Assembly (NCBI GenBank): GCA_025602915.1
Contig: JAHLJZ010000071.1
Coordinates: forward strand, 54,263 to 118,262
Source: Paraphysoderma sedebokerense
Lineage: Eukaryota; Blastocladiomycota; Physodermatomycetes; Physodermatales; Physodermataceae
Direction of reading: 5' to 3'
DNA length: 64,000 bases
Below are positions 1 through 60,833 of this stretch, one piece after another. The stretch's first letter is position 1, and each line of letters starts with the position of its first letter. Both the position numbers and the translations under genes were made by a program. Below the pieces are notes generated by a model. That model made no database searches. It was given only the letters and a program-made list of their open reading frames with translations, and was not told the origin of the DNA.

Positions 1-208
1 TCCAAACTTGACGATCTAGGCTCGTGGTAGCAGGATCATCCCATATTTCTGCGAATATTTCCTTATACCTAGTAACACTTTGATAAAACTCCAAATTTTC
101 TTCAGAATGCTCAGTATTTTTGAGAAAGGATTCAAACTCTTTTAGTGAATATGGAGAGACAGTTTCATTCGCTAGAAGAGCCTGCAATGTTGATTTTCGG
201 ACTGACAT
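1..208 (-). CDS. RGS-domain protein, 5' part only (cut by window edge)
   Basis: Start ATG is at 208 on the minus strand; 69 codons are visible before the edge. The residues TLQALLANETVSPYSL and the following EHSEENLEFY are the first helices of a regulator of G-protein signalling (RGS) domain, which speeds GTP hydrolysis by G-alpha subunits. It is identical to the first exon of the complete gene at 39215-40770. Whether this copy has its remaining exons depends on sequence left of the window, so it may be intact or truncated. It is divergent from the K+ transporter at 806. Confidence 0.8.
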   Translation of the reverse strand, partial: MSVRKSTLQALLANETVSPYSLKEFESFLKNTEHSEENLEFYQSVTRYKEIFAEIWDDPATTSLDRQVW

Positions 209-805
209 TCGATCGAGATTACAGTAATTATGAGAATGGGATAATTCGACGGCGCAATGATTTCGCAAAGACGAACGCGCTCGGAAAAACAAATAAATTT
301 TTGTCGATGAATGATGGGCAAAGAGATCACCAAACTTGTATACGAATGCCGACGGAAGATAAAATTCGATGGCTAAAGTGGAGTCGGAGTTTTCGCCTTG
401 ACTTTTTTGTACCTGAAAGTCAGAAGGAACGAACAAAGAAAGAGCTTGCTCCTGAGGGCACGCGAACCAAGTTCAGTCTGAAGGAAAGCAGTAGAGGTGA
501 GATTAGGTGTGTGGAATTTTCATTTCTGCCCCACCAGTCAATTACGAACCTTATCCTTCGTTATGCTACGTGGATAAAGCATTTGGGCCGATAATCCTTT
601 CCACAGTTTAATTGTTTGGCTTCATTCGAGTTAACCACTGCGGCCAATATCGTCAAGCCGATATTTGATGCTTCCCTTGCCAGGGGCAATTCGTCTTTGT
701 CTTGCTCTTTGCGAGGGGTCATCTGTCGTTACACTAACATGATAGTATAGTAATAATGGAGTTTAAGCTGCCGCTGTTGTTGTCCGTCTTCACCTTCCGA
801 AAATC
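209..805. other. Intergenic region between divergent RGS and HAK genes
   Basis: About 600 bases separate two divergent start codons (also at 40771-41367). It must hold both promoters and 5' leaders. The open frame at 145-594 on the plus strand begins with GTG, overlaps the RGS exon in antisense and resembles nothing I know, so I do not call it a gene. No clear regulatory motif was recognised. Confidence 0.5.
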
Positions 806-3783
806 ATGCATGATCCAAACATTAGTTCAAGCAGCAATTGTCCTAATTCCGCATCTTCACTTACGCCAAGGAAACCGCAAAATGTTTTGAACAACTTAGA
901 TGAAAATCCTAACTCTAAGGACGCCTTCCCTGCCGCAAAAAGGAAAAGCGTGGCGTCATTGGTTTCTCCGATACCAGTCTCGAATAACCGTCGCAGTTCG
1001 TTCTTCAGTTGGAGAGCATCATCACATGCACCAGCACTCGATCCAAGTTTATCATCTTACCTTAAAATGGCGGTTAAGAAGCCGCAAGATGACAAAAATG
1101 TGGATACGCAGGGTAGAAAGAGGAGACGATTATCGATTGGTACGATGTTACTCATTCCACCGATGCCAAAACGTTCTGAGAAGTATGCTCCAGTCGATGT
1201 TTTTCTGCCTTCGGCATTGCTGAGTGCAACTCATTTTCTAATCGTCTATTTCCTAGGATGTCATTGAGGGAAGTTATCAAATTGGCCGGTATAGCTACTG
1301 GTTTGATTTATGGTGATACTGCCACTGCTCCTATGTTTGTCCTCAAGCACATGGTCCACTCCGATTTCAACGAAACTGCTTATGAGCTGCAAATAATGGG
1401 TTTTCTCAGTATCATTATTTGGATCACAATCATCCTCGGTGCTATTAAATACGTTGGATGTGTTGTTCAAGCGGACAACAATGGTGAAGGGGGGACATTA
1501 GCGTTAATCTCAATGTTACCAAGTGCAGAAGAGGAAAGTGCCCCGGTTATAATCAAAAAGTTTTACCGTATCTTCTTTACGGCTGCATTGTTGGGTTGTG
1601 GATTCATCCTTGCAGACGGAGTTCGTAATTTCAGAATCATCCTTTCCAACATCTACTTGTATTGACTATTTCGTAGCTTATTACGTCCCCGATTTCAGTA
1701 GTCGCGGCCGTAGAGGGTCTATCAACAATTGATTCGTGAGTTGAGGATACTTCGTACAAGTTTCCGGTATTCCCTAATATCAAACCCTTACAATAGTGTC
1801 TTCGATGACTTGGTTATACCAATTGCTTGTGCGATATTGTTCGCGTTATTTTATTCTCAGCAGTACGGCACTGGCAAAGCATCGAGAGTTTTTATACCTC
1901 TTATGATCGTATGGTTCATTATTATATCGTCTCTGGGTCTTTATAGAATTATAGAAACCCCAAGAATATTATCAGCATGCAACCCTCTTTGGATCCTCCA
2001 TTTCGTCAGTTTCAAAGGAGCAAAAGCTTCGTTTTCTACTCTCTCTGATGCGTAAGTATACATATTATATTTACTTATTTTAAGCTGGTTTACAAATTCA
2101 TCAGTTTGTCAGGGTCCTTGCAATTACCGGACTTGAAACAATTTACGCCGACATCGGTTCGTACAAGCGAAAGCCGATATACTTATCATTTTTGACCGTT
2201 GTCGTTCCAGCCATCATTTTGAACTATCTTGGGTAACTTTTATAATAACTCTATACTTTGCATGGCAGCCAAATAATCTCTTTTTAGGCAAGGTGCACTT
2301 TTACTAAATGCGTTCGATAATGCTCTTCCCAGCAAAAACCTTGTCGTAGGAAATCCATTCTTTTATCTCCCGCCAAGGTTAGTGATAAAATAAATGTACA
2401 ATGAGATAATTACATTTTCTCATGTTTTGCATGTGGATCGATAGTTGGTTGCGATTGCCTCTGGTGTTGTTCGCCACACTCGTGTCCGCTATTGCTTCGC
2501 AAGGAACCATTTCTGGCTGTTTTAGTCTTGTTGGTGTGTATAGATTTTGATAGGTGAGCATTATTATCACTGTGACAGCACTAACTGCGCTGGCTTTGTT
2601 AGATCAAGCGGTATGTTTTTTGCAAAAAAAATGCAGCGACTTCTTCCCCAATGTCCTGATTAACCATGTTAGATCTCACTGCGAGCGTTTCCGCCGGTGG
2701 AGACCTATCACATAGTCAAGGATGGTCATGAGAGCGTTTATGTACCGATTCTCAACAAGATATTGTTACTTGGTGGACTCGTATTGGTGATAGTATTTCA
2801 GAAGGGCGACTCAATTACAAATTTGTATGGTTGGTAACATTCTCCCAGATCTTAAACTTCAAGTTTATTGACAACAAATTAGGGCTGTGTGTGGCTGGTG
2901 CAATGACTATAACTTCCATTCTATTTATTCTTGTGATGAAGTTCAAGTGGAAGACGAAAATGACACTTATTGTTTTGTTCATGCCCATCCTGGCTTTGGA
3001 TACATTGCTCTTCATATCAACACTTACGAAAGTGGTGAAATTTGCTTGGGTCGCAATTATAATCAGCCTGTTCTTCTTTTTTGTTATGTTCGTTTGGCAC
3101 AACATCACTGAAGAGATAAAAAATATTGAAGATAATGACTTGTGGAATATAGCGATGTTGCGACAACATGTCCGTACCCATCCCCGAATAACGAATGCAA
3201 TGGGCGTCTTCTTTGCGTCCGGTGATGAAGGTAACCCCAACTCAAATTTGGTTTCAAAACTGCGTGCATAAAAATTTAACAATTTGATATTCAGAGGTTC
3301 CTGACGCTCTGTGTAAACTCGGCCTCCGATTACAATGCCTTCCGGAAATAATTTTAATGGTTACAGTCTTTTGTGTGCCGCTTCCATTTGTCAGCGACGA
3401 AGATCGGATTCAATTCCGAACGATTGACTCCGCGCTTGGATTATATAAAGTCACTGTATGCTATGGCTTTGCAGAAAGACAAGTAGATACAATGCATGCG
3501 ATTGTAAAAGCACGAAAGCGGGGATTGAGACACAAAGAAGGGGATCCGGTGTCATTCTTTACTTGCAGAAGTTCCATAGTAAGTCATCCCGCAAAAGGTC
3601 GGCTGCATGCGTTGTACGTTGCATTCTATGAGATTATGAGTAGAAATAGTTCAAACTTTGTTTACAGCTACAAACTACCCGCTAAAGATACGATGGAGGT
3701 GTGTTCAAAGCATTGATAATTTTTCATGATTCCATTTAACGATTCTAGCTTCATTTTAGATAACCAGTCAAATATTCATTTGA
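806..3783 (+). CDS. HAK: HAK/KUP-family potassium transporter
   Basis: Plasma-membrane K+ uptake carrier. Exon 1 (806-1182) encodes a Ser/Lys/Arg-rich cytoplasmic N-terminus. Exon 2 (1257-1620) opens with SLREVIKLAGIATGLIYGD, the first membrane segment and GxxYGD signature of HAK/KUP carriers. Later exons give about 12 hydrophobic segments, including ILADG, VVAAVEGL, LAITGLETIYADIG, ISGCFSL and FKWKTKMTLIV. The C-terminus ends ITSQIFI after a last intron (acceptor at 3759, stop 3781-3783). Between ISGCFSLV and ISLRAF the reading frame needs an 8-base exon (2603-2610). An AATAAA at 3945-3950 may serve polyadenylation. The two introns around the ADG motif use a weak donor (GTTCGT), so those borders are less sure. 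HAK carriers are usual in fungi and plants and absent from animals. Confidence 0.93.
2603..2610 (+). other. HAK: 8-nt microexon in the HAK gene
   Basis: Eight bases (atcaagcg) completing Asp-Gln-Ala are flanked by an AG at 2601-2602 and a GT at 2611-2612. Joining upstream exon end 2533 and downstream start 2673 restores LVDQAISLRAF, matching the HAK family pattern (SLxxQAIxLGxxP). No other splice choice in 2534-2672 keeps the frame and this motif. Confidence 0.7.
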
Positions 3784-4239
3784 ATGGATTACTCAAGTTA
3801 AAATCTTTATGGAAACTATTTTCTTTTGGGGTTCATACTGACCAGAATTTCATGTTGATGATTCACATCGCAATTCCGGGCTTTTAACTGTTTTCGTGTG
3901 TGATTAGTTTTATGCTGTAATAATATTTATAAATAGAAATGCTCAATAAAACATAATCAAGACACATATGTGATAATTGCCACCGTTCTCTAGTTCTCTA
4001 ATGATAATGAGTTTTCATTGTAGAATCATCGCTAGAGCCAGCTCTGCTCATTGATGACTCTATAGAAAATTATAGAGTCTAAAATACCTTATAAAAAATC
4101 ACTGAATTACAGATCGAGGATTTAACGAGACTAAGCTTAAATGTCATTGTATCAAGAGGCAGTTTTTGAAAGCATTTAAAATCTGGAAAATTATCGCCGA
4201 TATTAGTATTGTGCTTCACGGAAAGCGAAGCCTATAGCT
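3784..4239. other. Intergenic region between convergent HAK and katanin genes
   Basis: AT-rich 456 bases between two stop codons (second copy 44346-44801). Apart from AATAAA at 3945-3950 and a short AT-rich palindrome (gactctatagaaaattatagagtc near 4055-4080), I see no feature. Confidence 0.5.
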
Positions 4240-7218
4240 TTATTGATCCCCAAGATGGGAGAACTCCTTCAAGGCATCCCTAATACAATTCCCTAAGGTT
4301 CCCGGAACTTTCATCAGGTCATTTAGCTGCGCTCGAATCATTTTTAATTCTTCGTAGCAAGATTTACATTTCCTGATCCTGCCGAACGGATTAGAACGAC
4401 AATAGTCAGAAAATATACGTGGAATAAATGAAGGCAATATAGCGACATATAAAAAGAGTGTGAACAGAAGGAAGCATAAGAGTGACGGAGAAAAGGAGCT
4501 TAATTACTTCTCATCGCGATTAATATCTACACCAGGTGAGTAGAATTGCTGAACTGATAGTGTCGTTTTAATCAGTTCCCCAAATTTTCGAAGAATTATT
4601 TTGATTGTAGAGCAGGCTGTTGTGATATAGCTTTTGAATTAACAGTCGAGTCAGACATACGGACACTAATGTTTCACACTATTTTGATTAAATGAATGTC
4701 ACCATACTCTTCATACACATCGAACAGCAACTCCCTTAACAGCGGCAACAATCCCGTGCTAACATCCAAACTAATAAGTCTAGGTCTTGACATTAGCAGC
4801 CTCATAACATCAATCCAGACACTGCGATCATGTACTTCGTAAAGCGCTAACACAGAATTTCTAGCGTTCGATTCGATCCAAAGGGATTTGACAACACGAA
4901 GATGTTTCAGTCGCGTCGAAAGAATCGCTATCATGGAGCTACTGGAGGTTTGCATATTGCTGATCAGTTCCGACTCCGACCGTGGATGCAATGACGATGT
5001 GGTGATAGGTGCTCGAGTGCGCTCGCTCCCTCGCTAATCAAACAAAGAACGTAATTGATGAAATCTATAATCATACAGAAAAGAGAGAAGAAAATCTTAC
5101 TCACCATGAATTCGATGAAATCCAAGTTGATCATGGATTGTCCGACGGCTGGAACGAATGGCGATTTCATTCCGCCAGAGACGCTGGTATTTGGAACATG
5201 ACTTGTGATCTCCAAGGGAGTTTTACTATCGACAAGGGTTAATCCTATTAATCTTCTATCCAGATCTAACCGCTCGCCCAGCATTGGTGCTACTTCACGA
5301 GGATTATCAATGCTACTTAAGTATTGTTGCTCCAATTCATCAAATGACATCGATGATCCCGTCACATCTACTTGTGTATTTTGATTGACAACGTTGCTAT
5401 TCGACCTCGACAACATGGGTAAGCTCGAGCCTGAAGAGTTTGATCGGTTGAGAGATCCGTGTGATACAGTATTGTTTGTCAAAGTTGAAGATGTGAATGC
5501 CTTTTTAGCGGTTTTTGGATGTTTGAACCGCGGCTTAGGCGTTGATATTGACGAGGCGGAGTTGGGACGATGAGACATGGTTGAGGAGGAAGACGGAAGA
5601 TTAGGAAGAATTGGCGGTGTTGAAGTAGAGATGGATGATGAAGAGTCAAATTCTACATTTATATTATATATAGTTAGCGCTATAGACGGAGGAGATGCCT
5701 ACATGGCTAAATACCATATGCTGCTGATTTTTGGAGCTCTGAGATAACCCCATTCATATGTATAGGTGGCAAAGTCGGCTGGTCAGATGCAAAAGCTTGA
5801 TCAAGAACTGCAGTTATCAATTTCGGTGAACCAGTTTGCGTCATATTAGTGTAAGTCATAAAATCCGGTGTCGTTAAATGGTCCTTCCGGTTAAACTGAA
5901 GCTGACTTTTGCTGCCGACAGTGTGGGATTCACTCGGGGCCACTTGAAGGCTATCGCTCGACTTAAACGGCCGACATTGCTGAATCAGAGTTGCAAACTC
6001 AGTTGATGATCGAGAATCATGTATAGTACAACTATACACACCATTATATCTGCTACCCATACTGTGACGATACTTTGATCTATCGTGGCAGCGACCAATT
6101 GACCCGAATTGGATGTTGCATTGAACTCCGCCAGGTTTTTCCAGTCGACATTGACAGTATCGTGACAAAATAACGGCTCCCATTCCCAAATCTTCGATGT
6201 AACTCATCAGTGTAATGCGTATTGAAGCCTTTTTACTACTACTAAATTTGAATTCTCACCTTAAATCCTTCATTGCTAGCGGCAATACAAACACTTCCAT
6301 CATTCGTAAAACCTAGCTTTTTTAGTTTTGATACTGGATTACTGTACTCTGGTGTGGATGATAACAAGTCAAAGGTCTCCATATCCCAAAATTTGATTTC
6401 ACCGTTTTCGCTTCCCGTGGCCATGAGGAACTCGTTTGGATGGAAACATATTGTACTAATAGAGCTCTTCGTATGACTGAACGTATGGAGTAGTTTTCCA
6501 CCAGTTAAATCCCACAACTGATATGTCGAGGCCATACATTTTCTAGTTAGATTAATGGATTCAGATGTTTACAACGCGGCATTTGTTACCTTGATTTGAG
6601 ATTCTTCCCCTCCAGTTGCGATCCATTTTCCGTCAGGGGACATTCTAAGGATATGAACGGACTCGTGCTGCCCGGAATAAGTTTGAATGCACCCTTTTCT
6701 TCGGATGTCCCATACCTTTAATGATCCATCGTTGGACACCGAAGCAAAAAATTCACCAAATGGATGAAATTCCACTGCTCGTACATTGGATCGATGACCA
6801 CTTAATGTCCGTATCACTAAGACAAGGGAAGCCGCAAATGAAGTTTTACTGTACTCTTAGTCATCCGCATTGATTTATATTTCGGTTTACCTTTTGCATG
6901 CTCCAAATCCCACAATTTGATTGATCCCCCTGCAGACCCGGCGACCACCAATTGCTCCACTGAATCCATTGTTACACATTCTACCGGAGTAGTGTGACCA
7001 GAGAGGCTCTTTATTAATTAGAATGAAAAAGAATTTGTATTTATGGATTTGTGGTGGTAGGGGTCCTTGTGAGAACGGCAATATTACCATGATACATTCG
7101 TTCCGGCCGATAGCCCACAAATTGACTCTTCTATCGTCACCCCCTGTGACCATAACCCTAGCACTTTGCGGACCGATTTTCAGACATGATACAGCGGAGG
7201 CATGGGCGATGAAGTCGT
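4240..7218 (-). CDS. KATNB1: Katanin p80 (B1) regulatory subunit
   Basis: Non-catalytic partner of the microtubule-severing AAA protein katanin p60; it targets the complex to spindle poles and basal bodies. Spliced exons give six WD40-like repeats: [32 protein letters not shown] with [24 protein letters not shown] with [46 protein letters not shown] with IKFWDME, and [20 protein letters not shown] long Ser/Thr-rich linker follows (about 5580-6000), then the C-terminal con80 domain ([55 protein letters not shown]). The stop is at 4240-4242. The order and residues match animal katanin p80 throughout. The first coding exon upstream of 7218 is uncertain; an ATG at 7302 with an intron at 7219-7265 is possible. 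The gene is head to head with IFT22. Confidence 0.93.
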
Positions 7219-7490
7219 CTTCGAACAGGTGGCGAAATTATGTGAGTCACAGTGCGACGACAAACAAGGATAGAAAAAAGGAAGCACGTAGTCAACAAAC
7301 ATAATTTTCCAACTATGGGCATGGGTATCAAGATCTTATGGAATGTATGGTGGAAGGTATCTTGACAGGATGATGACAAGAAAAAATAAGTGGATCGCGA
7401 AGGCTGAAGAACGCGTGAATACAAGAACGGTCGGCCAAGGATTCCCATTACGACCAGCAACGAAACATTGTTAAATTCACAGCCTAGAAA
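7219..7490. promoter_or_regulatory. Shared promoter region of katanin p80 and IFT22
   Basis: At most 272 bases, and about 190 if katanin starts at 7302, separate the two divergent start regions (second copy 47781-48052). With both genes tied to microtubules and flagella, one bidirectional promoter is a reasonable inference. I did not recognise an RFX-type X-box. The minus frame at 7158-7613 is a shadow across both genes. Confidence 0.45.
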
Positions 7491-8456
7491 ATGACATCGT
7501 CCAGAAGAGTAAAGATCGCTCTGATAGGTCCTCCTCAGTCGGGGAAAACTTGTATAGCCAGTGATGTTATTTTTATCGCGCTCTCTCTGAGTATCGGCAA
7601 CTCTTCTTAACACTCAAAATGTTTCTGCCAATCCAGACTACCTCGCTTCAATCGACTCATCCCTCCGTAAAAACAAATATAGGCCCACAGTTGGTGTTAG
7701 GATTTTGGAATTTGACAGAAAAATCAAGCAAACTGGGAGCACGAAAAGTAGATCAGCGTCAGATAGTCCAGTTACTGTAACGGTGGAGTTGTGGTGCGTT
7801 TGCTTTATCTGTTCATATGTTTTGACCCTAAAAATTGATCGGTTAATCCAAGGGACTGTTCCGGTAACGAAAAGTGAGTAATTTACATCTATTGATGCTC
7901 GTGTGATGTATAGGTATACCAAACCATGCCCTGACTGGACACATTCAATATCATTCTGTTCCATGTACTTCAAACTGAAAGTTACGAGGGCAACTGGTCA
8001 TCTCTTATTGAGGATGCCGATGGCATATGCTTTACGATTAACGCGGACAGCAGCAATGTAGATGCCGATCTATTGAAATGGTCATTGTTGTTGTCTCTAT
8101 TTCCAAACAATATGTAAATTTGACATGTCTCTTATCTGTGCTGTTCTTCCGCAGGCATTCTCAATTTAATTACCTAAAAGACCAGCAATCTATAATTTTC
8201 CTGCATAAAATGCAAAATCCAAATCAATCAAGATCAAAATTCAAGCTACGTAAGTTACCAATCATCATCTTATGACTTCAATTGGATTTTGCCAATTTTA
8301 TCGGTTCATCCATATTAACAATCGGCTATTATACATAAAACAGCGAAGGCACTTGCTAAGATATCGGCAATTTATACGAGTCTTGATGTGGATGCTGACA
8401 CAATGAATATTCAAAGCCAATTTGATCGACTGTTAAGTAACTGTTTGGCAAAATGA
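7491..8456 (+). CDS. IFT22: IFT22 / RABL5 intraflagellar transport small GTPase
   Basis: Rab-like GTPase of the IFT-B complex, needed to build and maintain the flagellum. Six exons were traced: 7491-7560, from 7637 to an end shortly after ELW, a short exon DCSGNE ending at 7873, from 7982, then two more to stop 8454-8456. The 184-residue product has P-loop GPPQSGKT (residues 13-20), PTVGVRILEFD (40-50, matching PTQGVRILEFE in animal IFT22), ELWDCSG (74-80), and the family's weak C-terminal half without a classic NKxD motif. Animal IFT22 is 185 residues. An intron cuts inside the P-loop exon right after CIA, restoring ANYL. This is a strong marker that the organism makes a flagellum. Confidence 0.92.
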
Positions 8457-8687
8457 GAGAAGACCAAAACGAAAATGAAGTGGATAGGATAGCATAGAAG
8501 AAGTGACTGAGTCTTGCTCTTTTTCCATTTACATATCTTGGATTAGTGTGATTCGCGATAACAATTTGTAAACATGTTGTCGGACTACGGGAAAGTCGCG
8601 GAATTTCAGTTTCTAACATTGAAGTAAACCTTTATTGATTATGCCTGGTCAAATGGAATCTCCTTCCAAACTTCTATAAGCGCAATC

Positions 8688-10318
8688 TCATGATGCAGTA
8701 TTCTGTAGATAGTTCCTGAACCAATCTCTAAAGTTGACATGAGTCAAGTCGATGCCGACTTTCTGCATAGCTGAGGTTGATAATTGAGCGTTGTTGGGTC
8801 TTGGTGCTGTTGTTTGAGAAAAAGTATACATGAATATGACGATTTGAAGATTTAAGAAGTTTTAAGACTGATCGAATTGAATTTTTTACCTGCATCGGGT
8901 TTGGGACCTGCAGGATTGATGTGGTCGATAGGAACTGCTAAAAGTTCACCAAAAATTTCTACCGAGTAGAATTAGGGCATATTCTTCAACCTTGCCAAAG
9001 AGAATTCCAAGAAAAAGAACAGAATACATACTGCACATATCATATTTCGTCATCCTTTCCGTAGCACTAAAATGGAAAATACCATGGATAGCGGGATTCT
9101 TCTGAACAACGGCTTTTTCAATCAACTGATGAATTACGTTTCCGACGTCGAGGACTGTAATCGTTAGAGTAAACAATTTTGTATTAGCTATAATTTCAAA
9201 ACTCGACATGTGGATACGAATAGGGCAAGACTACCGTTCGTAGGGTACCGAATCTGCACATTATCCATGTCTACTCTGTTAGACGGATTCTAGTTTGAAT
9301 TAATGTGATTAGCATAAGCGCTACAAACAGCTTTACAAATGATTGAACGAACTTTGACAATATCCATTAGTATGTTGACTGCAGATTCTTCAGGTTTAGC
9401 AACCGGGCCGTATAAAACTGGAACACGAAGAATAACCGCACTAGGGTTCACCTGACGAATTGCCTGTTCGCCATTAAATTTAGTCTTGCCTTTATAAGTG
9501 TTAATGTTAACGGACGAGAAATGCAAGGGGCAGTCAGCAAACATTTCGTCTGGAGAGGAGGGTCGTCTATGAAGTCTTATGACGCACCATAGAAGTTCAA
9601 AGGGTTCGGCAGGTCGTTAACCTCGTAAGGCGGTTTGGCCCCGTCAAAGACATAATCCGTTGAGATATATATAAAGAGGGCTTTCAGTCTTAAAGCCAGG
9701 TTGGCCAAATGTTCAGTCGTCGCGACGTTTAACTAAATTAACAAAGTACGTCATACTTCTGTAATGCAAAAACTAAGGTAATCCAGTTCTGTTGCCCATA
9801 CTTTTAGTGCTCCGTCAGGATCTTTGGCAGCAACATCTGGCCGCCTCTCGGCTGTGTTCGTGAGGGAAGGAGACACGAAGGTAAGATCACTTTGACAAGC
9901 TGCACGCAATGGCAGGCATAGGATAGAACTGTACCAGCACAGTGAACAATCACATTTGGCTTCTCGGTTTCAAAGAATTTTGTCACTGCTTCTGGGTCGA
10001 GAAGGTCGAGCTGATGTCGATTTGCAAGTAGCAAAGAATAAGCCAAGGGCAGATGACAAGTAACTGCGAGAACAAGGTACAAACTTTTTTGAGGCTTCCG
10101 TGTGCTCTTGAAAATCCAAGTCCGACGACTGATTTAAAAAGTTAAACGGGAATGCGTCAGCACGAGAATCTAATATAAATCGTTAACGGTGGCAGAATGC
10201 CGACATCACCATCGTAATCTTTGGCAAGAGTGCCCATGACAGCCCTGCCGAGGAGACCAGACGCCCCGGTGACGATGATTTTAGGTTTCTGCTGAGTGAG
10301 GTTCATGTTCCCGTTCAT
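8688..10318 (-). CDS. MAT2B: MAT2B-like NAD(P)-binding regulatory subunit of methionine adenosyltransferase
   Basis: Extended short-chain dehydrogenase/RmlD family. The start is ATG 10318; an N-terminal Rossmann motif IVTGASGLLGRAV follows at about residue 15. Further exons carry DPEAVTKFF, PNVIVHCAG, the segment around YVFDGAKPPY, PLNFYGKTK (catalytic-type YxxxK, spliced over an intron), NPSAVILRVPVLYGPV, ESAVNILMDIVK, VLDVGNVIHQLI, GIFHFSATERMTKYDM and AVPIDHINPAGPKP. These follow human MAT2B in order, so a role in tuning S-adenosylmethionine synthesis is likely; dTDP-4-dehydrorhamnose reductase activity is the alternative. The stop is at 8688-8690. It is divergent from the CAX gene with about 124 bases between start codons. 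Confidence 0.88.
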
Positions 10319-10442
10319 GTAAAAAGATGCTGTTCTGAAAGACTGTGGATATATGTGTAAGCTGGTCCACCGCCAGACCGCGCGTTGCCTTGATTGAATC
10401 TCATCCGCAGTCTGATTTATCGCCTGCACTGATAACACCAAG

Positions 10443-12323: not shown

Positions 12324-12645
12324 AAGAGACTAAGAATCTACGGATCATTGTAAATAAAGAGCTGAATTGTATCGTTACATCTAAATGGTAGCAAAGCATG
12401 AAATATAATTCGTTTGTTGGCCACTTTTTGCAGCATCAAATGCCACTGCCGGCGACCAGGCAGAACGTGAAAAAAAGCGCGTAAATTTGCATGTGGGAAA
12501 AGGTCGCTGGGACATAGTTCAATCATCAGCGCATCCACCACATCAGATATACTGCTCCAATTTTGAATCATTCCATACCTCCTTCGACATATCGCCGTCC
12601 TTTTCTGTTTCTTGTTTTGTCTCTGCCATTCTCCATTTCTCTATA
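12324..12645. other. Intergenic / 5' region of the FHA gene
   Basis: Holds the CAX 3' end and the FHA-gene promoter (second copy 52886-53207). The open frame extends upstream of 12646 without a stop but lacks a convincing ATG and has no recognisable content, so I treat it as leader. Confidence 0.4.
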
Positions 12646-15826: not shown

Positions 15827-15905
15827 ATAAATATTTGCGACCACCGGCTAGCTAAATGTTGGAGTTCTGGCGATTTCTTATGAAACGGCGATGGACTTGT
15901 CCGAC

Positions 15906-47780: not shown

Positions 47781-48052
47781 CTTCGAACAGGTGGCGAAAT
47801 TATGTGAGTCACAGTGCGACGACAAACAAGGATAGAAAAAAGGAAGCACGTAGTCAACAAACATAATTTTCCAACTATGGGCATGGGTATCAAGATCTTA
47901 TGGAATGTATGGTGGAAGGTATCTTGACAGGATGATGACAAGAAAAAATAAGTGGATCGCGAAGGCTGAAGAACGCGTGAATACAAGAACGGTCGGCCAA
48001 GGATTCCCATTACGACCAGCAACGAAACATTGTTAAATTCACAGCCTAGAAA

Positions 48053-49018: not shown

Positions 49019-49249
49019 GAGAAGACCAAAACGAAAATGAAGTGGATAGGATAGCATAGAAGAAGTGACTGAGTCTTGCTCTTTTTCCATTTACATATCT
49101 TGGATTAGTGTGATTCGCGATAACAATTTGTAAACATGTTGTCGGACTACGGGAAAGTCGCGGAATTTCAGTTTCTAACATTGAAGTAAACCTTTATTGA
49201 TTATGCCTGGTCAAATGGAATCTCCTTCCAAACTTCTATAAGCGCAATC

Positions 49250-50880
49250 TCATGATGCAGTATTCTGTAGATAGTTCCTGAACCAATCTCTAAAGTTGAC
49301 ATGAGTCAAGTCGATGCCGACTTTCTGCATAGCTGAGGTTGATAATTGAGCGTTGTTGGGTCTTGGTGCTGTTGTTTGAGAAAAAGTATACATGAATATG
49401 ACGATTTGAAGATTTAAGAAGTTTTAAGACTGATCGAATTGAATTTTTTACCTGCATCGGGTTTGGGACCTGCAGGATTGATGTGGTCGATAGGAACTGC
49501 TAAAAGTTCACCAAAAATTTCTACCGAGTAGAATTAGGGCATATTCTTCAACCTTGCCAAAGAGAATTCCAAGAAAAAGAACAGAATACATACTGCACAT
49601 ATCATATTTCGTCATCCTTTCCGTAGCACTAAAATGGAAAATACCATGGATAGCGGGATTCTTCTGAACAACGGCTTTTTCAATCAACTGATGAATTACG
49701 TTTCCGACGTCGAGGACTGTAATCGTTAGAGTAAACAATTTTGTATTAGCTATAATTTCAAAACTCGACATGTGGATACGAATAGGGCAAGACTACCGTT
49801 CGTAGGGTACCGAATCTGCACATTATCCATGTCTACTCTGTTAGACGGATTCTAGTTTGAATTAATGTGATTAGCATAAGCGCTACAAACAGCTTTACAA
49901 ATGATTGAACGAACTTTGACAATATCCATTAGTATGTTGACTGCAGATTCTTCAGGTTTAGCAACCGGGCCGTATAAAACTGGAACACGAAGAATAACCG
50001 CACTAGGGTTCACCTGACGAATTGCCTGTTCGCCATTAAATTTAGTCTTGCCTTTATAAGTGTTAATGTTAACGGACGAGAAATGCAAGGGGCAGTCAGC
50101 AAACATTTCGTCTGGAGAGGAGGGTCGTCTATGAAGTCTTATGACGCACCATAGAAGTTCAAAGGGTTCGGCAGGTCGTTAACCTCGTAAGGCGGTTTGG
50201 CCCCGTCAAAGACATAATCCGTTGAGATATATATAAAGAGGGCTTTCAGTCTTAAAGCCAGGTTGGCCAAATGTTCAGTCGTCGCGACGTTTAACTAAAT
50301 TAACAAAGTACGTCATACTTCTGTAATGCAAAAACTAAGGTAATCCAGTTCTGTTGCCCATACTTTTAGTGCTCCGTCAGGATCTTTGGCAGCAACATCT
50401 GGCCGCCTCTCGGCTGTGTTCGTGAGGGAAGGAGACACGAAGGTAAGATCACTTTGACAAGCTGCACGCAATGGCAGGCATAGGATAGAACTGTACCAGC
50501 ACAGTGAACAATCACATTTGGCTTCTCGGTTTCAAAGAATTTTGTCACTGCTTCTGGGTCGAGAAGGTCGAGCTGATGTCGATTTGCAAGTAGCAAAGAA
50601 TAAGCCAAGGGCAGATGACAAGTAACTGCGAGAACAAGGTACAAACTTTTTTGAGGCTTCCGTGTGCTCTTGAAAATCCAAGTCCGACGACTGATTTAAA
50701 AAGTTAAACGGGAATGCGTCAGCACGAGAATCTAATATAAATCGTTAACGGTGGCAGAATGCCGACATCACCATCGTAATCTTTGGCAAGAGTGCCCATG
50801 ACAGCCCTGCCGAGGAGACCAGACGCCCCGGTGACGATGATTTTAGGTTTCTGCTGAGTGAGGTTCATGTTCCCGTTCAT
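49250..50880 (-). CDS. MAT2B: MAT2B-like regulatory subunit, second copy
   Basis: Identical to 8688-10318. The Rossmann motif TGASGLLGR and the spliced YGKTK motif are intact. Confidence 0.88.
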
Positions 50881-51004
50881 GTAAAAAGATGCTGTTCTGA
50901 AAGACTGTGGATATATGTGTAAGCTGGTCCACCGCCAGACCGCGCGTTGCCTTGATTGAATCTCATCCGCAGTCTGATTTATCGCCTGCACTGATAACAC
51001 CAAG

Positions 51005-52885
51005 ATGAGGCAAAGTTGTAAGTGCGGATTATTGTGATTGCGCTGCCCTTTCCTATATCTTGTGGCACATTTCTCACATCCTGTATGTAGCTCCGCTTCC
51101 ACCCGCCGACACCACCATATCCGTGCCGTCAGAGTCGTCCCCACTTCTCAACACACAGAATGAAAACTCCGACGATATTGATTCCATCCATTCATATGAA
51201 GAACCTACCTTTAAATCAAGTTTGGTTAACATAATGAAATCGTCATGGATCAATCTTCTTTTGATTTTCATTCCCATCGGTTGTTTCAGTGGTTCATTTG
51301 GGTGGGGTGAATCGGTGACATTTTGGTTAAACTTCCTTGCCAGTACATCCCATATTCTTTTTGCCATATTTTACTCTGTTTACCGACTGATGTATGCTTG
51401 TTTTATTTGAATAGTCATACCACTAGCTCACCAATTGGGCTATGCAACCGAGGAATTATCAATCAGAACAAACCAGAGTATTGGGGCGCTATTAAACGGT
51501 AAAAGAAGAACAATTTCTCAATTATGTCTCCAGATATGCTAATATTTTTGCTACCAGCAACATTCGGAAATGCAGTTGAATTAATCTTAAGTATAGTCGC
51601 TCTTAAGGACGGACTAGTGAAGGTGGTCCAGGCCAGTCTTTTGGGTTCAATATTGAGTAACCTCCTCCTAGTGAGCTGTCCTTCAATCATTCGGAAGAAT
51701 ATGCTATACACTGACTGTGAATATTTAGGTAACTGGATTTTCCTTCTTGCTGGGCGGACTTCAATTCAAGGAGCAGAAATTCAACGTAACGGGTTTGTCT
51801 TGCTTGATCCATTCTTTGTGGCCACCCTTCAATGATTTCTGATAGTCACAAACTTAGCTGCACAAACCTCTTCGTCTCTTCTGTCACTAGCGGTCATGTC
51901 TTTATTACTACCTGCGGCCTTCGTGTCCACATTAGAAGATGACAAATCGTCCATCTTGGCTCTTTCTCATGGAACGGCCGTCATTTTGTTGATCATTTAT
52001 TTTCTCTATCTGTTCTTTTCCTTGAAGACACACCATTACCTTTATACCGGGGAACCAGAGGAAGAAGAGGAGAGAGCAACTCTGACGCTGTACATGGCGA
52101 TTCTCTTGTAAGATTTAGATTCAAAAATCACACAGTTGTAACCTTGTGAAGTTAATTTATAGCTGTTCAGGCTTCTCGTATCAACGCTGCTGGTAGCTGT
52201 TTGTTCTGAATACTTAGTAGGTAGTATCGAAGGCTTAAGCGAGGAAATGCATCTATCCAAAACATTCGTTGGATTGATTATTCTGCCTATTGTCGGAAAC
52301 GCTGGTAATGTTGCGACTTCTCAAATTCTTCCTGTTGCAATTTCTTCCGGGCTTCGCATTTAACTATAATCACGGATTTCTCGAATAGCGGAGCATGTCA
52401 CGGCGGTGACAGTTGCAATGAAGGATAAGATGGATCTATCAATCGGCGTTGCGGTTGGCAGTAGCATGCAAATTGCTTTGCTGGTGACCCCGCTTCTGGT
52501 GTATGTTATTTAGTTGATTCACGCTTCATATAGAGTTGTCTAATATTAGAATATGTTAGCGTGGTCGGCTGGATCACTGGTCAACCTATGACATTATTCT
52601 TTGGTAAGTGCAAGAATGTTGATGCATGGAAATTCGGGGCGAACCGGTACGCTAATTGGGGATGCATACAGAAACTTTCGAGACCGCCGTTCTTTTCATT
52701 TCGGTCCTTATCACTACGTACCTAATCAATGATGGACGATCAAATTGGTTGGAAGGTGCTATGTTACTTGCGGTAATATCTGTATTTCCCTTGGTTGCGA
52801 GGACTAGATACTGACCAGTGATTGCTGTTTCCCTTCTGTTTAGGCTTACGGAATTGTGGCCCTTGCATTTTTCTTCCATCCTTAA
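51005..52885 (+). CDS. CAX: Vacuolar Ca2+/H+ exchanger (CAX), second copy
   Basis: Identical to 10443-12323, including the 13-base first exon (51005-51017) and both alpha repeats (GNAVELILS and GNAAEHVTAV). Confidence 0.93.
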
Positions 52886-53207
52886 AAGAGACTAAGAATC
52901 TACGGATCATTGTAAATAAAGAGCTGAATTGTATCGTTACATCTAAATGGTAGCAAAGCATGAAATATAATTCGTTTGTTGGCCACTTTTTGCAGCATCA
53001 AATGCCACTGCCGGCGACCAGGCAGAACGTGAAAAAAAGCGCGTAAATTTGCATGTGGGAAAAGGTCGCTGGGACATAGTTCAATCATCAGCGCATCCAC
53101 CACATCAGATATACTGCTCCAATTTTGAATCATTCCATACCTCCTTCGACATATCGCCGTCCTTTTCTGTTTCTTGTTTTGTCTCTGCCATTCTCCATTT
53201 CTCTATA

Positions 53208-54776
53208 ATGTCGCTTGAGGGCCTCAGCATTCTTTCCGCCGTAGCGTCGAACTCACAAACGCAACCACCGACTCCAAACAACCGCACCTCCCTGGATTCT
53301 TCTTCTGGTGTTTCTGAACATATTACTGTTTATGGTGCTTATGATAAACCGATATTCATTGGACGAGGACCGACCGTAGACTATTCTCTGCCCAACAAAA
53401 AGGTGTCGCGAAAGCATTTGCTAATTGAATACATCAATAACAATGACACCTTTGCTCTTAAAGTTTTGGGAATGAACGGCGCATACGTCGATGGAAATTT
53501 AGTGAAAGGAGACGCAGAGAGCTTGTTCCCAATTCAGGATGGAAGCGTCATTGATATAAGGGGCACCACTTTGTTGTTTAGGCGGCCCCCTAAACCTTCA
53601 CTGGCGAGTACCAAGGAAACAGAAAAGAATGAACAAAAAGAATCAAAGGGCGAGAATACTAAAGACGACAAAAACCTGGAGTCAGAGCTGAGTGAAATTT
53701 CCGGATCTTCGTCTCCGAGCTCTGGCATCGCTCAAGATATTGTTGGTGCAGCAACTAAACGGAAATCTCAGAGAGGCCGCACGAGAAAGGTCTCGGACGT
53801 TTCCCGTACGACGTCACCAAATAACCCCGAAAATACCGAAAAAACATCCGAAAAAGCGACCACGCAATCCCAAACACAGATATCAAAACGTAACTTCGAC
53901 AACTCTGATATGTCGCCACGTAGAAAATACACTAGATCCCAAGGCAGCCCAAAATCACAATCAACGGAAATTTCCCTCACTGATGTTCTCATTGAAACTT
54001 TCTGCTTCAGCTCCCGACCGACCCTTGATATAAATGAACTTTACAATCAAATCTGTAGCTCTTATCCTGTATATCGTTCGAAACCGCCTCTGGAGTTTCA
54101 GTCGCAAATTCAAGATGAATTGAAGTCTCAACCTTTCTTCCACGTCCGCCCGAAGACACCGCTAATGAAGCGAATGACCCATTGGAGTTATACCGCCGCA
54201 GATGACCCGGATACTGAACGGCGAAATCGATTCGCTCAGATTACGAGTTCCCTACCGGTCCGTGGAGCTAGATTAAGTGAAAAGAAATATTATTTTAAGC
54301 TACCACAACTGAGGAGGTCGAAAGTCGCATCTAGTGGCGCAGGTGCTAATCACGAAGGACACCAAAATGCTGCTGGAGATGGCGGACATCGCCGTGGCAG
54401 AAAATCTGGGGGTAAGAATAAAAGAACTGTGGAAGAATACGAAACCGAAGATGAGGACGCGTTGAAGGGGGAAACGAAAAAGAAGAGGTCACACAAGAAA
54501 CGAAAACATCATCAAGAAAAAGATTCCGACGAGGTGGCTCATGATGATGCTACGATTGAAACAGTACTCTGTAGCGAAAACTTGCATTCAAAGGATCGAG
54601 GTCGAAAGCTGAAAGTTGCTGAGGATGTTAAAAAAGTTGATGAAGGTGACGACGTGAATAGCCCAATTGGAAAATCTGGTGCTGTTCGACGAATTCATGA
54701 TTACCAAATGGAAGATGAAAATGGCGGGAGGGTGATTGAAAAAACAATTCAAGCCTTGGATGTAGTGCAACAGTGA
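53208..54776 (+). CDS. FHA-domain nuclear protein, second copy
   Basis: Identical to 12646-14214: a 522-residue intronless frame with the FHA domain at the N-terminus, a possible degenerate fork-head in the middle and a basic tail. Confidence 0.85.
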   Translation: MSLEGLSILSAVASNSQTQPPTPNNRTSLDSSSGVSEHITVYGAYDKPIFIGRGPTVDYSLPNKKVSRKHLLIEYINNNDTFALKVLGMNGAYVDGNLVKGDAESLFPIQDGSVIDIRGTTLLFRRPPKPSLASTKETEKNEQKESKGENTKDDKNLESELSEISGSSSPSSGIAQDIVGAATKRKSQRGRTRKVSDVSRTTSPNNPENTEKTSEKATTQSQTQISKRNFDNSDMSPRRKYTRSQGSPKSQSTEISLTDVLIETFCFSSRPTLDINELYNQICSSYPVYRSKPPLEFQSQIQDELKSQPFFHVRPKTPLMKRMTHWSYTAADDPDTERRNRFAQITSSLPVRGARLSEKKYYFKLPQLRRSKVASSGAGANHEGHQNAAGDGGHRRGRKSGGKNKRTVEEYETEDEDALKGETKKKRSHKKRKHHQEKDSDEVAHDDATIETVLCSENLHSKDRGRKLKVAEDVKKVDEGDDVNSPIGKSGAVRRIHDYQMEDENGGRVIEKTIQALDVVQQ

Positions 54777-55331
54777 AGAGCGTACCGATTTTAAACAGGT
54801 GGTGGTTATGGGACAACTCACATGCGATATTATTCTTACTATTTTGGACCAATTCTTGCATTTTACTGCGTTTTAGGGTTAATATCCCTTTAGATACTAT
54901 TGTCAGTATGTACTTTTTGTGGAGGCCTTAAACCATATCTCACTAGCGTGCACAAATTTTTGTTCTCATCTGGTATTCATCTTCCATGCCAATTCTTTAT
55001 TGTCATCTGTTTTGGTCGAATTCAAGTTAAATTGTACATAATAGTCGATTAGAGTTGAGTTGTACTTGTTAAACTAAGAAGTTCTATCATTCAAGACGAC
55101 TGTAAAATGAGACGCAATACATTACATGGCTGATCATATTGATCCAATCGGTGTCTCATTATCGATTGCTTCGCACATTCATTCTATATAACCAAACCTC
55201 CCGTCCGTTGAGCGCATACAGAGATCATCCTTTTCAACCGTCACGTGACGCGTTGTCAACACAATTTTCGACTGTTACCCCAGTATAGTTTTTCTGGCCA
55301 TATCGACTTAACTCAACAAACAGAATCAGTA

Positions 55332-56388
55332 ATGTTGTCATCACTTTGTCAACAATTCAGACACCTCTGTAATTCATCCTTTGCACACGGTGCTAGTCAT
55401 CAAACACTCCGAACCTACGCCAGTATTTCTGCTGTCCCTAGATTGGTTACTTTGAACACACTACGTGACAATGAAGGTGCAACGAAACAGCGTAAGAGAT
55501 TAGGAAGAGGAGAAGGTTCAGGACGAGGCGGAACTTCAGGACGGGGCCATAAAGGGCAAAAGGCGCGGACGGGAACAGGGAAGCCTAGGGTAGGATTTGA
55601 AGGTGGCCAAACTCCATTAGCAAGAAGAATACCGAAGAAAGGATTTAAAAACGTGTATGTTGCCCTATTCATCGAATTCAAGACGCTGATTTAATGCAAT
55701 ACTGACGATCTCATCTCTTGGAGGCAGACACGGAAAAGATTATGCGACATTAAATTTGGATAGGTTACAGTGGTGGATAGATTCTGGAAGAATCGATCCT
55801 TCCAAACCCATTACAATGAAGGAATTGTTGGATTCAAGAGCAGTTCATAATGTAAAAGACGGAGTGAAGCTACTGGGCGATGTAAGTTTTAAAGTTATTC
55901 ATTTTTGGCTTCGTCTATGTCTATGGAAACCCAGCAAAACCAACATGTTCGGTCGTCCTTAGGGTGCTCCTTTCTTTAAAACGCCAATACATATAGAAGT
56001 GTCAATGGCTTCTCAGCAAGCGATCAAGGCGATTGAAAACGTAGGGGGGAAAATTCTCGCCGTATACTATAACAACTTGAATTTGCGGTCCCTTCTGAAA
56101 CCACACCGATTTCCAATATTGCCTCGCCGAGCTGATCCTATCAACACCAGGCTTCTAGGTATTTCGATCTCCTTCTTTCAATATCAACACTCACTTAATA
56201 CTAATTATTTATCAGAGTATTATCGGAACCCTGCAAATCGAGGATACCTCGCTCTCGACATCCAGCCTACGTATCCAGCACCTTCGGCCACTTTCTACAA
56301 CGGGTCATCACCTGTATCATACACCGCTCCTGCCCTTTCGTTACCCAAACCGACTAGATTAGCTGCCCCAAAAGATGTATTGAAATAA
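55332..56388 (+). CDS. MRPL15: Mitochondrial ribosomal protein uL15m, second copy
   Basis: Identical to 14770-15826, with the same E-box palindrome upstream (55240-55249) and AATAAA over the stop codon. Confidence 0.93.
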
Positions 56389-56467
56389 ATAAATATTTGC
56401 GACCACCGGCTAGCTAAATGTTGGAGTTCTGGCGATTTCTTATGAAACGGCGATGGACTTGTCCGAC

Positions 56468-57169
56468 TCATATTGATGCGTTTCGCTGTTCTTCCCTTTC
56501 CGTTAAAACATTCAGGTATTCTGCTGTCAGGTCCTCGCTCAGAACATCAGTTGGCCCTCGTTCTGCTTGCTTTTGACGCAGTTCTTCCAATTCCATCTGA
56601 AGCTCGATCACTAGTTGCCAGTCGTCATTATATCCTTCTAATGATATTTAGTGAATACGCCAGTCACAAAATACTTGCATCAAAATCGAAGGAGGTACTA
56701 AACTAACCATTGACGCAACTTTTGAATTCTTGAAAAGCATTCTCGATTTCACCAAGATTGAGATAACAATAGCCGAGTAAATGATGGCCATGTATTTCGG
56801 CGTCAGGTAAAGATGACTATTTTTGAGTTACATTTGAGTGATTAGACATTTCTGTGATTAAGCATTATCGAAACTCATCCCAAAGTAAACGAATTGATAT
56901 CGTACGCACATAATATTGCAAACAAATCATAGCCCGAGAATATGCACCCATTTTGTAGAAGTCTTTTGCGACCTGATATTTCAATTGTGATATGAAAGTA
57001 AATCAATACAAGATACTTTAAGATATCACAGATTCAAAATATTTGACATTTCCAATGTTAGAGAACCCCATGAAGAAATATTGAATGACCCCACCTGATA
57101 TACGTCTGCAGCTCCAGCAAGGCGATTTAAACGTCCCTTAAACCACATCAGTATTTCTTCTTTCGTCAT
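56468..57169 (-). CDS. Small TPR-like protein, second copy
   Basis: Identical to 15906-16607. Function is unknown; the paired-helix pattern resembles tetratricopeptide repeats. Confidence 0.65.
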
Positions 57170-57549
57170 TGTCGGTCTAAAATATATAGTCAGAGGGAAA
57201 TTTATCATCAGTCGAGGTCTGGTTATGTCAAGGACGTTATTGTATTGAGAACAATCAATTTTGAGGAGTGTGTGATACACTAAGAAACAAACCGAAAGGA
57301 TTCTAAGTCTTGATATTCGGACATTTCGGATAATCTTCAGCAGTGCAGATATGGCTGATAATGGGGGGAACTTTGGAGGTGAGATTTGAATGAAAATGTT
57401 ATGTACACCCCTCAGATTGGCGAAGGATCGTCTCACAACGCGATCAAATTCATGTCACTGCTTCTCCAACTCCGTTTTCGCTCCATTTATTTTCAACAAG
57501 TACTCATCCGCAAATTCATAAATTTATATATAGTTAAAGCTAATCTAGA

Positions 57550-58140
57550 ATGGTATCGAATGGCTGGCAAACTGGTAAGAGTTGTTCTCGGCATTGCTAT
57601 TGTAGAACACTGTCGAGTCTCGAACTTTATTCCGCATTCTAACTTCACATGCTTCCGTGATTTGACAGTCAAGAAGCATTCTCGTAGACTTTCAGAATCT
57701 CTTCGGAGGTCGCCCATCAAAGAACCTAGACAAACTAATTTTGATGATTACACACAACCTATCACAGTCAACCTGGATGGAAATGAACTTATTTATGAGA
57801 ACAATCTATGGAGTGCAGGTACGCTTCATCACTTTCAGTACAACGGTTCCTATAATGCCATGCTAATTGAATCGCAAATTGTCTACTTGTTTGCACTGTA
57901 GCATCAATCGATGGAAATCATTTGAAAAATCAGATAAATGCGCTGACTGAAGCGAATCAAACTCTCCAAGAAGAAAATCAATTTTTGAAGTTCAAAATAG
58001 GTATATTGTTGGACATGGTATGCAAACCGTCCCTTTTCAACTCTGATAGCGGCTGGTAAGATCTAATATATTGATAGCTATCCGTAACGAAGTTGGATTT
58101 ACTTCGCTTACAGGATGAGCACAAAAATAGCCCCAAATGA
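57550..58140 (+). CDS. CBY1: Chibby homologue, second copy
   Basis: Identical to 16988-17578, with the NNLWSA and ILLDMLS motifs and the same four-exon structure. Confidence 0.85.
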
Positions 58141-58222
58141 GCGGAAGAAAAATGTACGATATTGCGTAGACTGGACTGGAGATTCAAGATTGATTCCAAC
58201 ACTATATCGTCCTCTATTTTCA

Positions 58223-59895
58223 TCAATAAAAAAGCTCATCTTCCTTCAACATTTTAACCCCAAATGTGATAGTCTGGAAGTCTACGCCTGTAACTGAGCC
58301 ATACTTCTGAGCTACGGCAGTTAAATGTTTTTCTAACTCTGCTACATGGGACTGCCACTGAGCAATATAATCTGCATCGTCGTTTGACTCAGAATGAGCA
58401 AGAGGGTCGGAACGAATGGATAAATAAGAATCGATGGCGATGGACAAAACATTCACAAACACTTCCAACCAATTCATAAAGTTCTCTTTTCTCTGCGGAA
58501 TAAGACGGAAGTACACGAAACAAATCTTTTTCAGTGACACAGGAATTCGGAGTAAATTTCTATCTTTCAACTGAGTCTTGTCTTCATCTCGAAACAAATA
58601 ATCTATTATCTGGAGACGAAGCGAAGGCGATTCGACAGTCTTTACGACGGTGACGTTAGATAAAACAGTAAAGTTGGCTCAAGCGAAGGTCCGAGCTCAC
58701 CTTAATGAATGCGATATATTTCTTTGGCTCCCATTGGTTTATGACGGGACAAACATATGCAACCATGCTTTTCAAATCAATTAAGTTGCCATTGTTTCCA
58801 ACGATAGTCATCTAAAATTAACCGTTAAACAAGGGTTTGAAATGACCAATGTATTCTGATTCACCTACCAAAAAGAGAATCCTCTGCAGTAGTGTCAACA
58901 GAAAGACATCATCGCACTTTTCGAATGCCGAGAGCAGTTCGATCACGAACTGCGACAAACTTGTATGATGGCGGCTGTTGGCAGAGCGACCGATCATTGA
59001 ACTGAGAAGGCAATTATCTAAACAAGGGTGCGAGTTGAGATTCAGGAGAGGAAGACGGCAAAGTCGAATGTGACTTCACCTGAAGTTCCAGCAGATTGCA
59101 ACCACCGGTATGTGTCGGTTTCCAGAAGCCTCACAAAAGGTTGAAGTAAAACCTGCGACTGTAAAGTCTAAGGATAATATCGTTAGATTGTTCGGAAAAT
59201 AAGATGAGTTTTTATTTTCAACTCACCGCATCGTCATTCCCACTAGCTTCGACGATTTTCACAAAACAGAGACGCAAATATGACCACAAGGATGAAATTT
59301 GGCTTCCTTCCGGATGCACATCTTTTTCTAGTATTATAGCATCCTCGATAGAGTTTGCCCCATGCCAGCCAATGGTCGCTGATATTATTTTTTGACTCTC
59401 TCGCAAATAAACTGGGTTAGGACCAAACTTCTGGCTACTTTGGCTTTCCGTTCTGTAATCATTCGACTCATTAGGTCGATTATATTTTGCAGACTGTTGT
59501 ACCATTCCCTCCAATATTATAGAGCGAATGATAGAGCTAAGCAGGAAAGATGTGTTAATTTGCACAATTATCGTGGGAAATGATCATGAAACAAGCGGTA
59601 AATATCGTACGGTTGAAGTCCCACACTCGGAGATAAGAAAGGTTCGAGTAGCCGAACGGCAGCCTCAACTGATATATAGCAAGTCAATAATAGATCACAG
59701 GGGCCCTTTGACATGCAGAAGATACATACAGTGCCCATCTTCGATGTTGCTCTCAATAAGGCTCTTTGCATTACGGCTGAGTTCTTTGTACTTCAAGGGA
59801 TGCTGGGAGGGAGCTACAATATCTTTATAACTATATAAGAAATTTCGAGCATCCAGGGATAGATTTTGATCAGGATATGACACCCCGGCCATCAT
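58223..59895 (-). CDS. Unrecognised all-helical protein, second copy
   Basis: Identical to 17661-19333. The family is unknown; the reading frame is intact across the same inferred introns. Confidence 0.6.
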
Positions 59896-60416
59896 CTTCT
59901 AGGACGAGGACTGAAGTTGCTGTAAGGTGACGCGCCCAAGGTGGGAAGGTCGAGTAGTGATGTTCTTTCCTGTGAACTACCGTATCGCGCCTCCAAAGTT
60001 ATGTTAGATCAGTTTCTTCCTTTTAAGTGCACTTTCGCACTGATACTGACAACGATGTGGCTTAAATCTGCTACCGTGAGCATCGAGTGACCGTTGTCTC
60101 AGTTTATATTATGCAACGATTGATATATGGATGACCACAAACTGTTCCCTTGCAGATCCTGCAGCTTCCTTCAGCTTATCTCACAGAGGATTAAATCAGC
60201 TCTCACTGGCATGATTTCCACCGCACCCGCAACTGTATGAGGACGAACCCCAGCCTACGTGGTAACTCCCAGACATTTTTGACGTGGATCCTTCGGTTGT
60301 CAGTGGAAAGTCCTAATGTTTCGACATCACAATAAGTTCTAATTCCGACAGAAAAGCTATCCAGTTCGAAGATTACATCAAAAATGAAGTATGTATATCG
60401 AATGAGAAGCAAAAAC

Positions 60417-60511
60417 GCTCCAGGGTGGACTCGAACCACCAACCTTTTGGTCACGGCAGACTTTAGAATTTCTATAACAGCCAAACGCGCTAACCATTGC
60501 GCCACTAGAGC
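60417..60511 (-). tRNA. trnN: tRNA-Asn(GTT) with 23-nt intron, second copy
   Basis: Identical to 19855-19949; the intron is at 60452-60474. Arms and internal promoter boxes are intact. Confidence 0.93.
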
Positions 60512-60833
60512 AGTCGGACGTCAGGGCTCACAATTACAGATATTTTCAGACGCATTTATCTTTCAAGGTGTGACCAAATTGATTCCTCTGCTAAGCGCAA
60601 CAGTACTTCGACTAACGGTTGTACGAATGAAAATTTAACTCTGTCATTGTTCTCAATACTAGAATCTTGGATATTGTTGGCAAGGAATGTAATTGTTTTG
60701 GTTCATGTTACTTAAATTTATTCCCAGGTACGTTTGAAATTGTTGACATGCGTTATGTGTTTCAAGTGCGGTATTTTCTGTATTTGATATTTGTAACATA
60801 TGTTTTGTATCTCATTATTTTGTATGCAGTTTA

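What the first reader, a model, noticed from the sequence alone, without database searches (positions are those of the whole stretch)
1..60833. Two apparently identical copies of a 20.3-kb, eleven-gene segment in direct orientation, 40,562 bases apart
Seen directly: bases 1-20271 equal 40563-60833 wherever compared, including introns and intergenic DNA that should drift freely. The order is A-B-A'-C, with A running off the left edge. A real event would be very recent and would double dosage of a K+ transporter, a Ca2+ exchanger, IFT22, katanin p80, Chibby and others. The alternative is an assembly duplication, for example a heterozygous structural variant or a mis-joined haplotype.
Basis: seen in the sequence. 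Interest (0 to 1): 0.85.

Follow-up and report, generated by a model that had tools for sequence, protein, structure and literature searches.

The report
Likely false tandem duplication in assembly
The repeated stretch is an exact back-to-back double copy of 40,562 bases, and because the same draft genome holds many such exact doubles and unmerged contig overlaps, it is most likely an assembly error rather than a real gene duplication.

Summary
The identity is real in the sequence: window 1-20271 equals 40563-60833 with 0 mismatches. But A-B-A'-C is an effect of the window edge. On the whole contig (C71, 118,262 bp) the structure is L-X-X-C. X is 40,562 bp (C71:33972-74533 and 74534-115095), head-to-tail, with 0 mismatches, no N and no junction microhomology. 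B belongs to the unit; its first copy lies left of the window.

The pattern recurs. Fourteen further contigs hold same-strand copies at offsets of 3.1-64.2 kb, 100% identical in the duplicated stretches compared. Tandem structure is shown in full for C29 and C96 and at both boundaries for C27; for the rest only probes were compared. Separate contigs also overlap unmerged: C34/C98 (7,478 bp, 100% at three probes) and C79/C81 (33,445 bp, 2 mismatches in one of three probes). The within-contig pairs lie nearer contig ends than chance.

Best reading: overlapping contigs were joined without trimming the overlap, a "homotype" false duplication. A mis-joined second haplotype would hardly be 100% identical over 40 kb. 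No reads were available, so a genuine, very recent duplication is unlikely but not excluded.

The parts
1..20271 (+). Right half of the first copy of the 40,562-bp unit X (C71:54263-74533); the left half, C71:33972-54262, lies outside the window
20272..60833 (+). Second complete copy of X (C71:74534-115095), identical to the first in all 40,562 bases
20271..20272 (.). Copy/copy junction: blunt, 0 bp microhomology with either flank, no N; inferred false join
60833..60834 (.). Right end of the duplication; unit/flank boundary inside a dispersed repeat
20437..20588 (.). Near the unit's left end: one arm of an imperfect inverted repeat (72%) whose other arm lies at C71:33823-33991, so the left breakpoint C71:33971/33972 falls in a repetitive element
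60638..60997 (.). Dispersed repeat (longer matches about 70-82% identical, on more than ten other contigs) spanning the right breakpoint
60834..64000 (+). Right flank C: 3,167 bp, repeat-rich, to the contig end; last 423 bp are 100% identical to C136:39153-39575 (minus strand)

Best explanation
It is an assembly artefact. Two contigs that cover the same locus, L-X and X-C, overlapped by X (40,562 bp). They were joined end to end without removing the overlap, giving L-X-X-C. The true genome would then read L-X-C, with one copy of each gene. Shown: the exact two-copy tandem structure in C71, its blunt ends lying in repeats, the recurrence of exact same-strand copies on 14 other contigs, and unmerged overlaps between contigs. 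Inferred: that the join at C71:74533/74534 is false, and that an untrimmed overlap made it; which program did so is unknown.
For: 1) X is exactly two copies, 0 of 40,562 mismatches, no N, no microhomology. 2) The signature recurs: C29 12,545 bp and C96 3,140 bp, both exact tandems over the full unit; in C96 the second copy ends precisely at the contig end. C27 has a 33,212-bp unit with both boundaries where a tandem predicts. C15, offset 64,172: 7 of 10 probe pairs identical, 3 without a match. Ten more contigs: 0 of 800 mismatches each, 10 of 10. 3) In three surveys with all matches listed, 38 of 317 family matches lie in same-contig, same-strand, equal-score pairs (counted by hand from the rows, summed). 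4) Contigs also overlap each other unmerged: C34 end = C98 start (7,478 bp, 3 of 3 probes 100%); C79 end = C81 start (33,445 bp, 3 probes, one with 2 mismatches in 600); C7 start lies inverted inside C9, 100% at three probes up to 60.6 kb; C105 and C135 hold third copies of parts of the C87 and C46 duplicates. 5) The 15 within-contig pairs lie nearer contig ends than uniform placement (KS p = 0.0025; 12 survey contigs only, p = 0.0066). 6) Both breakpoints of X fall in repeats, where contigs tend to end (established knowledge). 7) The same error is in print: overlapping sequence at contig boundaries giving tandem duplicates after scaffolding (PMC8081667, passages), sometimes joined by incorrect gap filling (PMC9516828, passages).
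Against: No reads were available, so depth and spanning reads were not tested. Published homotype duplicates are often about one read long and separated by a gap; here X is 40.6 kb and C71 holds no N. Six of the 15 pairs lie well inside their contigs. C85/C116 does not match at the predicted overlap end; C7/C9 is a branch rather than a dovetail; one C79/C81 probe has 2 mismatches, so overlaps between contigs are not all exact while the within-contig copies compared are.
Confidence: 0.88

Rival explanations
1. A genuine, very recent tandem duplication of 40,562 bp, formed by blunt end joining and present in the sequenced strain.
For: Perfect tandem order, no gap, junction continuous in the contig; two copies and no third found. 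A graph assembler could also output a real but slightly diverged pair as identical copies (recalled, no call).
Against: Exact same-strand copies on 14 other contigs, with no mismatch in the duplicated stretches compared. X would have to be extremely young: the 95% upper bound on divergence is about 7e-5. It does not explain the overlaps between contigs.
Confidence: 0.07
2. Uncollapsed haplotypes: the two copies are the two alleles of one locus placed side by side (heterotype false duplication).
For: Two inter-contig pairs are 97.1% and 96.4% identical (C30/C163, C12/C152), which may be alleles; this error class is described in PMC2864568 and PMC8081667 (passages).
Against: The copies are 100% identical over 40,562 bases. 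In PMC2864568 the median identity of such false duplicates is 98.1%, few above 99.5%. It would need a homozygous region.
Confidence: 0.03
3. A minority or extrachromosomal form: a circle of X or a heterozygous tandem copy supplied real junction reads, and the assembler unrolled the loop twice.
For: Exactly two copies and a gap-free junction fit a loop edge walked twice; in C96 the contig ends exactly at the end of the second copy.
Against: Would need such loops at many loci and does not explain overlaps between separate contigs.
Confidence: 0.02

Closest known systems
Homotype false duplication at contig boundaries (Vertebrate Genomes Project; PMC8081667, passages seen)
   Same: Same locus present twice, without haplotype differences, in tandem, associated with contig ends, with overlaps between contigs.
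   Different: Here no gap of N at the join in C71, a 40.6-kb unit rather than about one read, and several cases well inside contigs.
Falsely duplicated contigs called DOC and DCC (Kelley and Salzberg 2010, PMC2864568, passages seen; reading these as overlapping and contained contigs is mine)
   Same: Adjacent contigs that align at their ends give a false segmental duplication; C71 resembles the overlapping kind, C96 the contained kind.
   Different: Their cases come mainly from haplotype differences (median identity 98.1%, most contigs under 2 kb, up to 28 kb); here 100% and, where the unit is measured, 3.1-40.6 kb.
Recent true tandem segmental duplication (established knowledge)
   Same: Head-to-tail order and doubling of whole genes.
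   Different: The same exact signature recurs on many contigs, with no mismatch in the duplicated stretches compared.

Membership tests
Homotype false duplication (assembly error) | Two copies of one locus, without haplotype differences | tested here: met
   0 of 40,562 mismatches; two copies of an interior piece found in the genome. That they stem from one locus is inferred
Homotype false duplication (assembly error) | Association with contig boundaries and unmerged overlaps in the same assembly | tested here: met
   C34/C98 and C79/C81 overlaps checked at both ends; position bias towards contig ends p = 0.0025, though 6 of 15 lie well inside
Homotype false duplication (assembly error) | Gap (N) between the copies, usual but not always present | tested here: not met
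   No N in C71. PMC9516828 says most often a gap, sometimes unsupported joining sequence
Homotype false duplication (assembly error) | Reduced read depth over each copy; k-mer copy number in assembly higher than in reads | not testable with these tools
   No reads available
Heterotype false duplication (two alleles) | Haplotype-specific differences between the copies | tested here: not met
   0 differences in 40,562 bases
True tandem duplication | Reads spanning the copy/copy junction and doubled depth | not testable with these tools
   No reads available

The most novel reading that the evidence does not exclude
The duplications are real: this small eukaryote went through a recent genome-wide burst of tandem duplications at 15 or more loci, with copies 3-64 kb apart, so recent that no base difference is seen in the duplicated stretches compared.
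Probability: 0.04. Interest if true: 0.7.

Novelty: not a real feature. Interest (0 to 1): 0.08.

Why it matters
Taken at face value the window would suggest doubled dosage of many genes. The same pattern is spread over the assembly: 38 of 317 listed family matches sit in equal-score same-contig pairs (summed). Gene-family counts, copy-number claims and apparent recent duplications from this assembly should be checked against reads, or purged of duplicates, before use. If reads instead supported the duplications, that would be a striking burst of tandem duplication.

Tried and rejected
Recombination between repeats as the cause: both breakpoints lie in repetitive elements, but the junction shows no shared sequence, and the self comparison of C71 (E up to 1e-8) listed no homology between the two breakpoint regions, so homologous exchange between repeats is not supported.

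Haplotype mis-join: set aside as the main cause because of 100% identity.

Inverted or palindromic read chimera: not applicable, the copies are direct.

Searches of the held library for chytrid with 195 contigs and chytrid with 27.3 Mb found 0 papers. The listing for overlapping contig ends and tandem duplication gave nothing that was used.

Gene names: of 20 ORF fragments given to Pfam, 10 had no match (2 of 10, 8 of 10); none matched a family named IFT22, katanin or Chibby.

Not followed: exact boundaries of the C15 unit and the extent of the copies on the ten contigs probed with 800 bp only; C11 (equal-score pair at offset 38,092) was not tested at DNA level. Three short stretches fetched beyond the predicted overlap ends (on C98, C116 and C81) were not compared.

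In one search the C7/C9 pair was left out by a loop limit; it was compared. In one search the tail of the 171 matches was not listed, so one search is not in the 38 of 317 count. C29 and C96 were noticed because they carry the repeat used as query, so those two are not a random sample; the 12 survey contigs were not chosen by that repeat.

Full report
OBSERVATION. The two stated segments are identical in all 20,271 bases, at a single offset of 40,562, and identity ends abruptly at 20272 / 60834. The window is C71:54263-118262 of an assembly of 27,287,198 bases in 195 contigs; C71 has 118,262 bases, so the window reaches the contig's right end. I read the rest of C71 and compared the contig with itself. 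The identity extends leftwards to C71:33972. The copies are C71:33972-74533 and 74534-115095: 40,562 bases each, 0 mismatches, adjacent. What looked like unique B in the window is the left half of the same unit. The correct description is L-X-X-C with X = 40,562 bp, L = 33,971 bp and C = 3,167 bp.

JUNCTIONS. At the left end, the middle and the right end the bases beside the unit differ at the first position, so there is no microhomology; there is no N in the contig. The left breakpoint falls inside an imperfect inverted repeat (C71:33823-33991 and 34137-34288, 72%). The right breakpoint falls inside a dispersed repeat (window 60638-60997) whose longer matches elsewhere are about 70-82% identical. 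A search with an interior 3-kb piece of X found two copies in the genome, both in C71. The first 3 kb of C71 have no near-identical match elsewhere. The last 423 bases of C71 are identical to C136:39153-39575, 353 bases from the end of that contig.

RECURRENCE. Two contigs showed repeat hits in equal-score pairs. Reading them gave two more perfect tandem duplications: C29:172735-185279 / 185280-197824 (12,545 bp) and C96:81969-85108 / 85109-88248 (3,140 bp), both 100%. The second C96 copy ends exactly at the contig end (88,248). To sample the genome without regard to that repeat I listed matches of four protein families: Pkinase (171 matches, the tail not listed), Helicase_C (82), RRM_1 (112) and Mito_carr (123). 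Equal-score same-contig, same-strand pairs appeared on 12 contigs: C15, C27, C91, C4, C23, C18, C28, C87, C3, C46, C43 and C14. In some searches, 38 of 317 matches are in such pairs (counted by hand from the rows, summed); matches are exons, not genes. DNA checks: C15, 7 of 10 probe pairs identical at offset 64,172 and 3 without a match; C27, of 9 probe pairs 3 identical throughout, 1 identical from 94213 on and 5 without a match, with the end at 127424 / 160636 exactly as a 33,212-bp tandem predicts; the other ten, 0 of 800 mismatches each (10 of 10). With C71, C29 and C96 that makes 15 contigs with exact direct copies. Tandem structure is fully shown for C71, C29 and C96, and by both boundaries for C27; for the other 11 only copies at a fixed offset are shown. 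A further candidate on C11 was not tested.

OVERLAPS BETWEEN CONTIGS. Eight pairs with equal scores lay on different contigs. C34 end / C98 start (overlap 7,478 bp) was 100% at all three probes. C79 end / C81 start (33,445 bp) was 100% at two probes and had 2 mismatches in 600 at the third. C116 start matches C85 at two probes (100%), but the predicted end does not match. C7 start is inverted and identical inside C9 at three probes up to 60.6 kb and not at 100 kb. C135 and C105 carry third copies, 100% over the 800 and 1,462 bases compared, of parts of the C46 and C87 duplicates. C30/C163 and C12/C152 are only 97.1% and 96.4% identical and may be alleles or paralogues.

POSITION. The 15 within-contig pairs lie closer to contig ends than uniform placement predicts (KS p = 0.0025; Fisher 0.00017, which includes the zero distance of C96; for the 12 survey contigs alone KS 0.0066, Fisher 0.023). 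Six pairs (C29, C27, C15, C4, C23, C18) are well inside their contigs. For 11 of the contigs the positions used are those of the family matches, not the unknown unit edges.

INTERPRETATION. An overlap that the assembler left unmerged appears as identical ends of two contigs; if those contigs are later joined end to end the overlap becomes a perfect tandem duplication with a blunt join. Both states are present in this assembly. This is the homotype false duplication described by the Vertebrate Genomes Project (PMC8081667, passages; see also PMC9516828, passages) and resembles the falsely duplicated adjacent contigs of Kelley and Salzberg (PMC2864568, passages). Two features differ from the typical case: no gap at the join and a unit longer than most reads; PMC9516828 does mention joins made by incorrect gap filling. 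Which program made the join is unknown. A true duplication would have to be one of 15 or more similar events, none showing a mismatch in the duplicated stretches compared.

GENES. In X, Pfam supports a K+ transporter (PF02705, two fragments), a Na/Ca exchanger domain, an FHA protein, leucine-rich repeats, trehalose-phosphatase (with a sub-threshold glycosyltransferase 20 hit upstream), a cupin-like protein and a Mad1-like protein. If the artefact reading holds, each is single copy at this locus.

VERDICT. Observation correct in its identity, incomplete in extent; most likely an assembly artefact (0.88). Read mapping would settle it.

Noticed in passing
Whole assembly G000; e.g. C29:172735-197824, C96:81969-88248, C27:94213-160636: Exact direct copies at offsets of 3-64 kb on 15 contigs and overlaps between contigs; the assembly needs purging of duplicates.
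   Followed up: partly
C30:22001-22800 / C163:12787-13586 and C12:171201-172000 / C152:20011-20810: Inter-contig pairs at 97.1% and 96.4% identity, one partner of each on a small contig; possibly alternative alleles of a heterozygous genome.
   Followed up: no
window 60998-61290: A 293-bp stretch with 100% identical copies on C37 and C32 and shorter identical copies on C89 and C11: perhaps a recently moved short element.
   Followed up: no
window 60638-64000: Repeat-rich right flank whose parts recur together on several contigs, in some of them within the first few kb of the contig.
   Followed up: no
C11:49582-49790 and C11:87674-87882: Another equal-score same-strand pair, offset 38,092, a candidate sixteenth case.
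   Followed up: no
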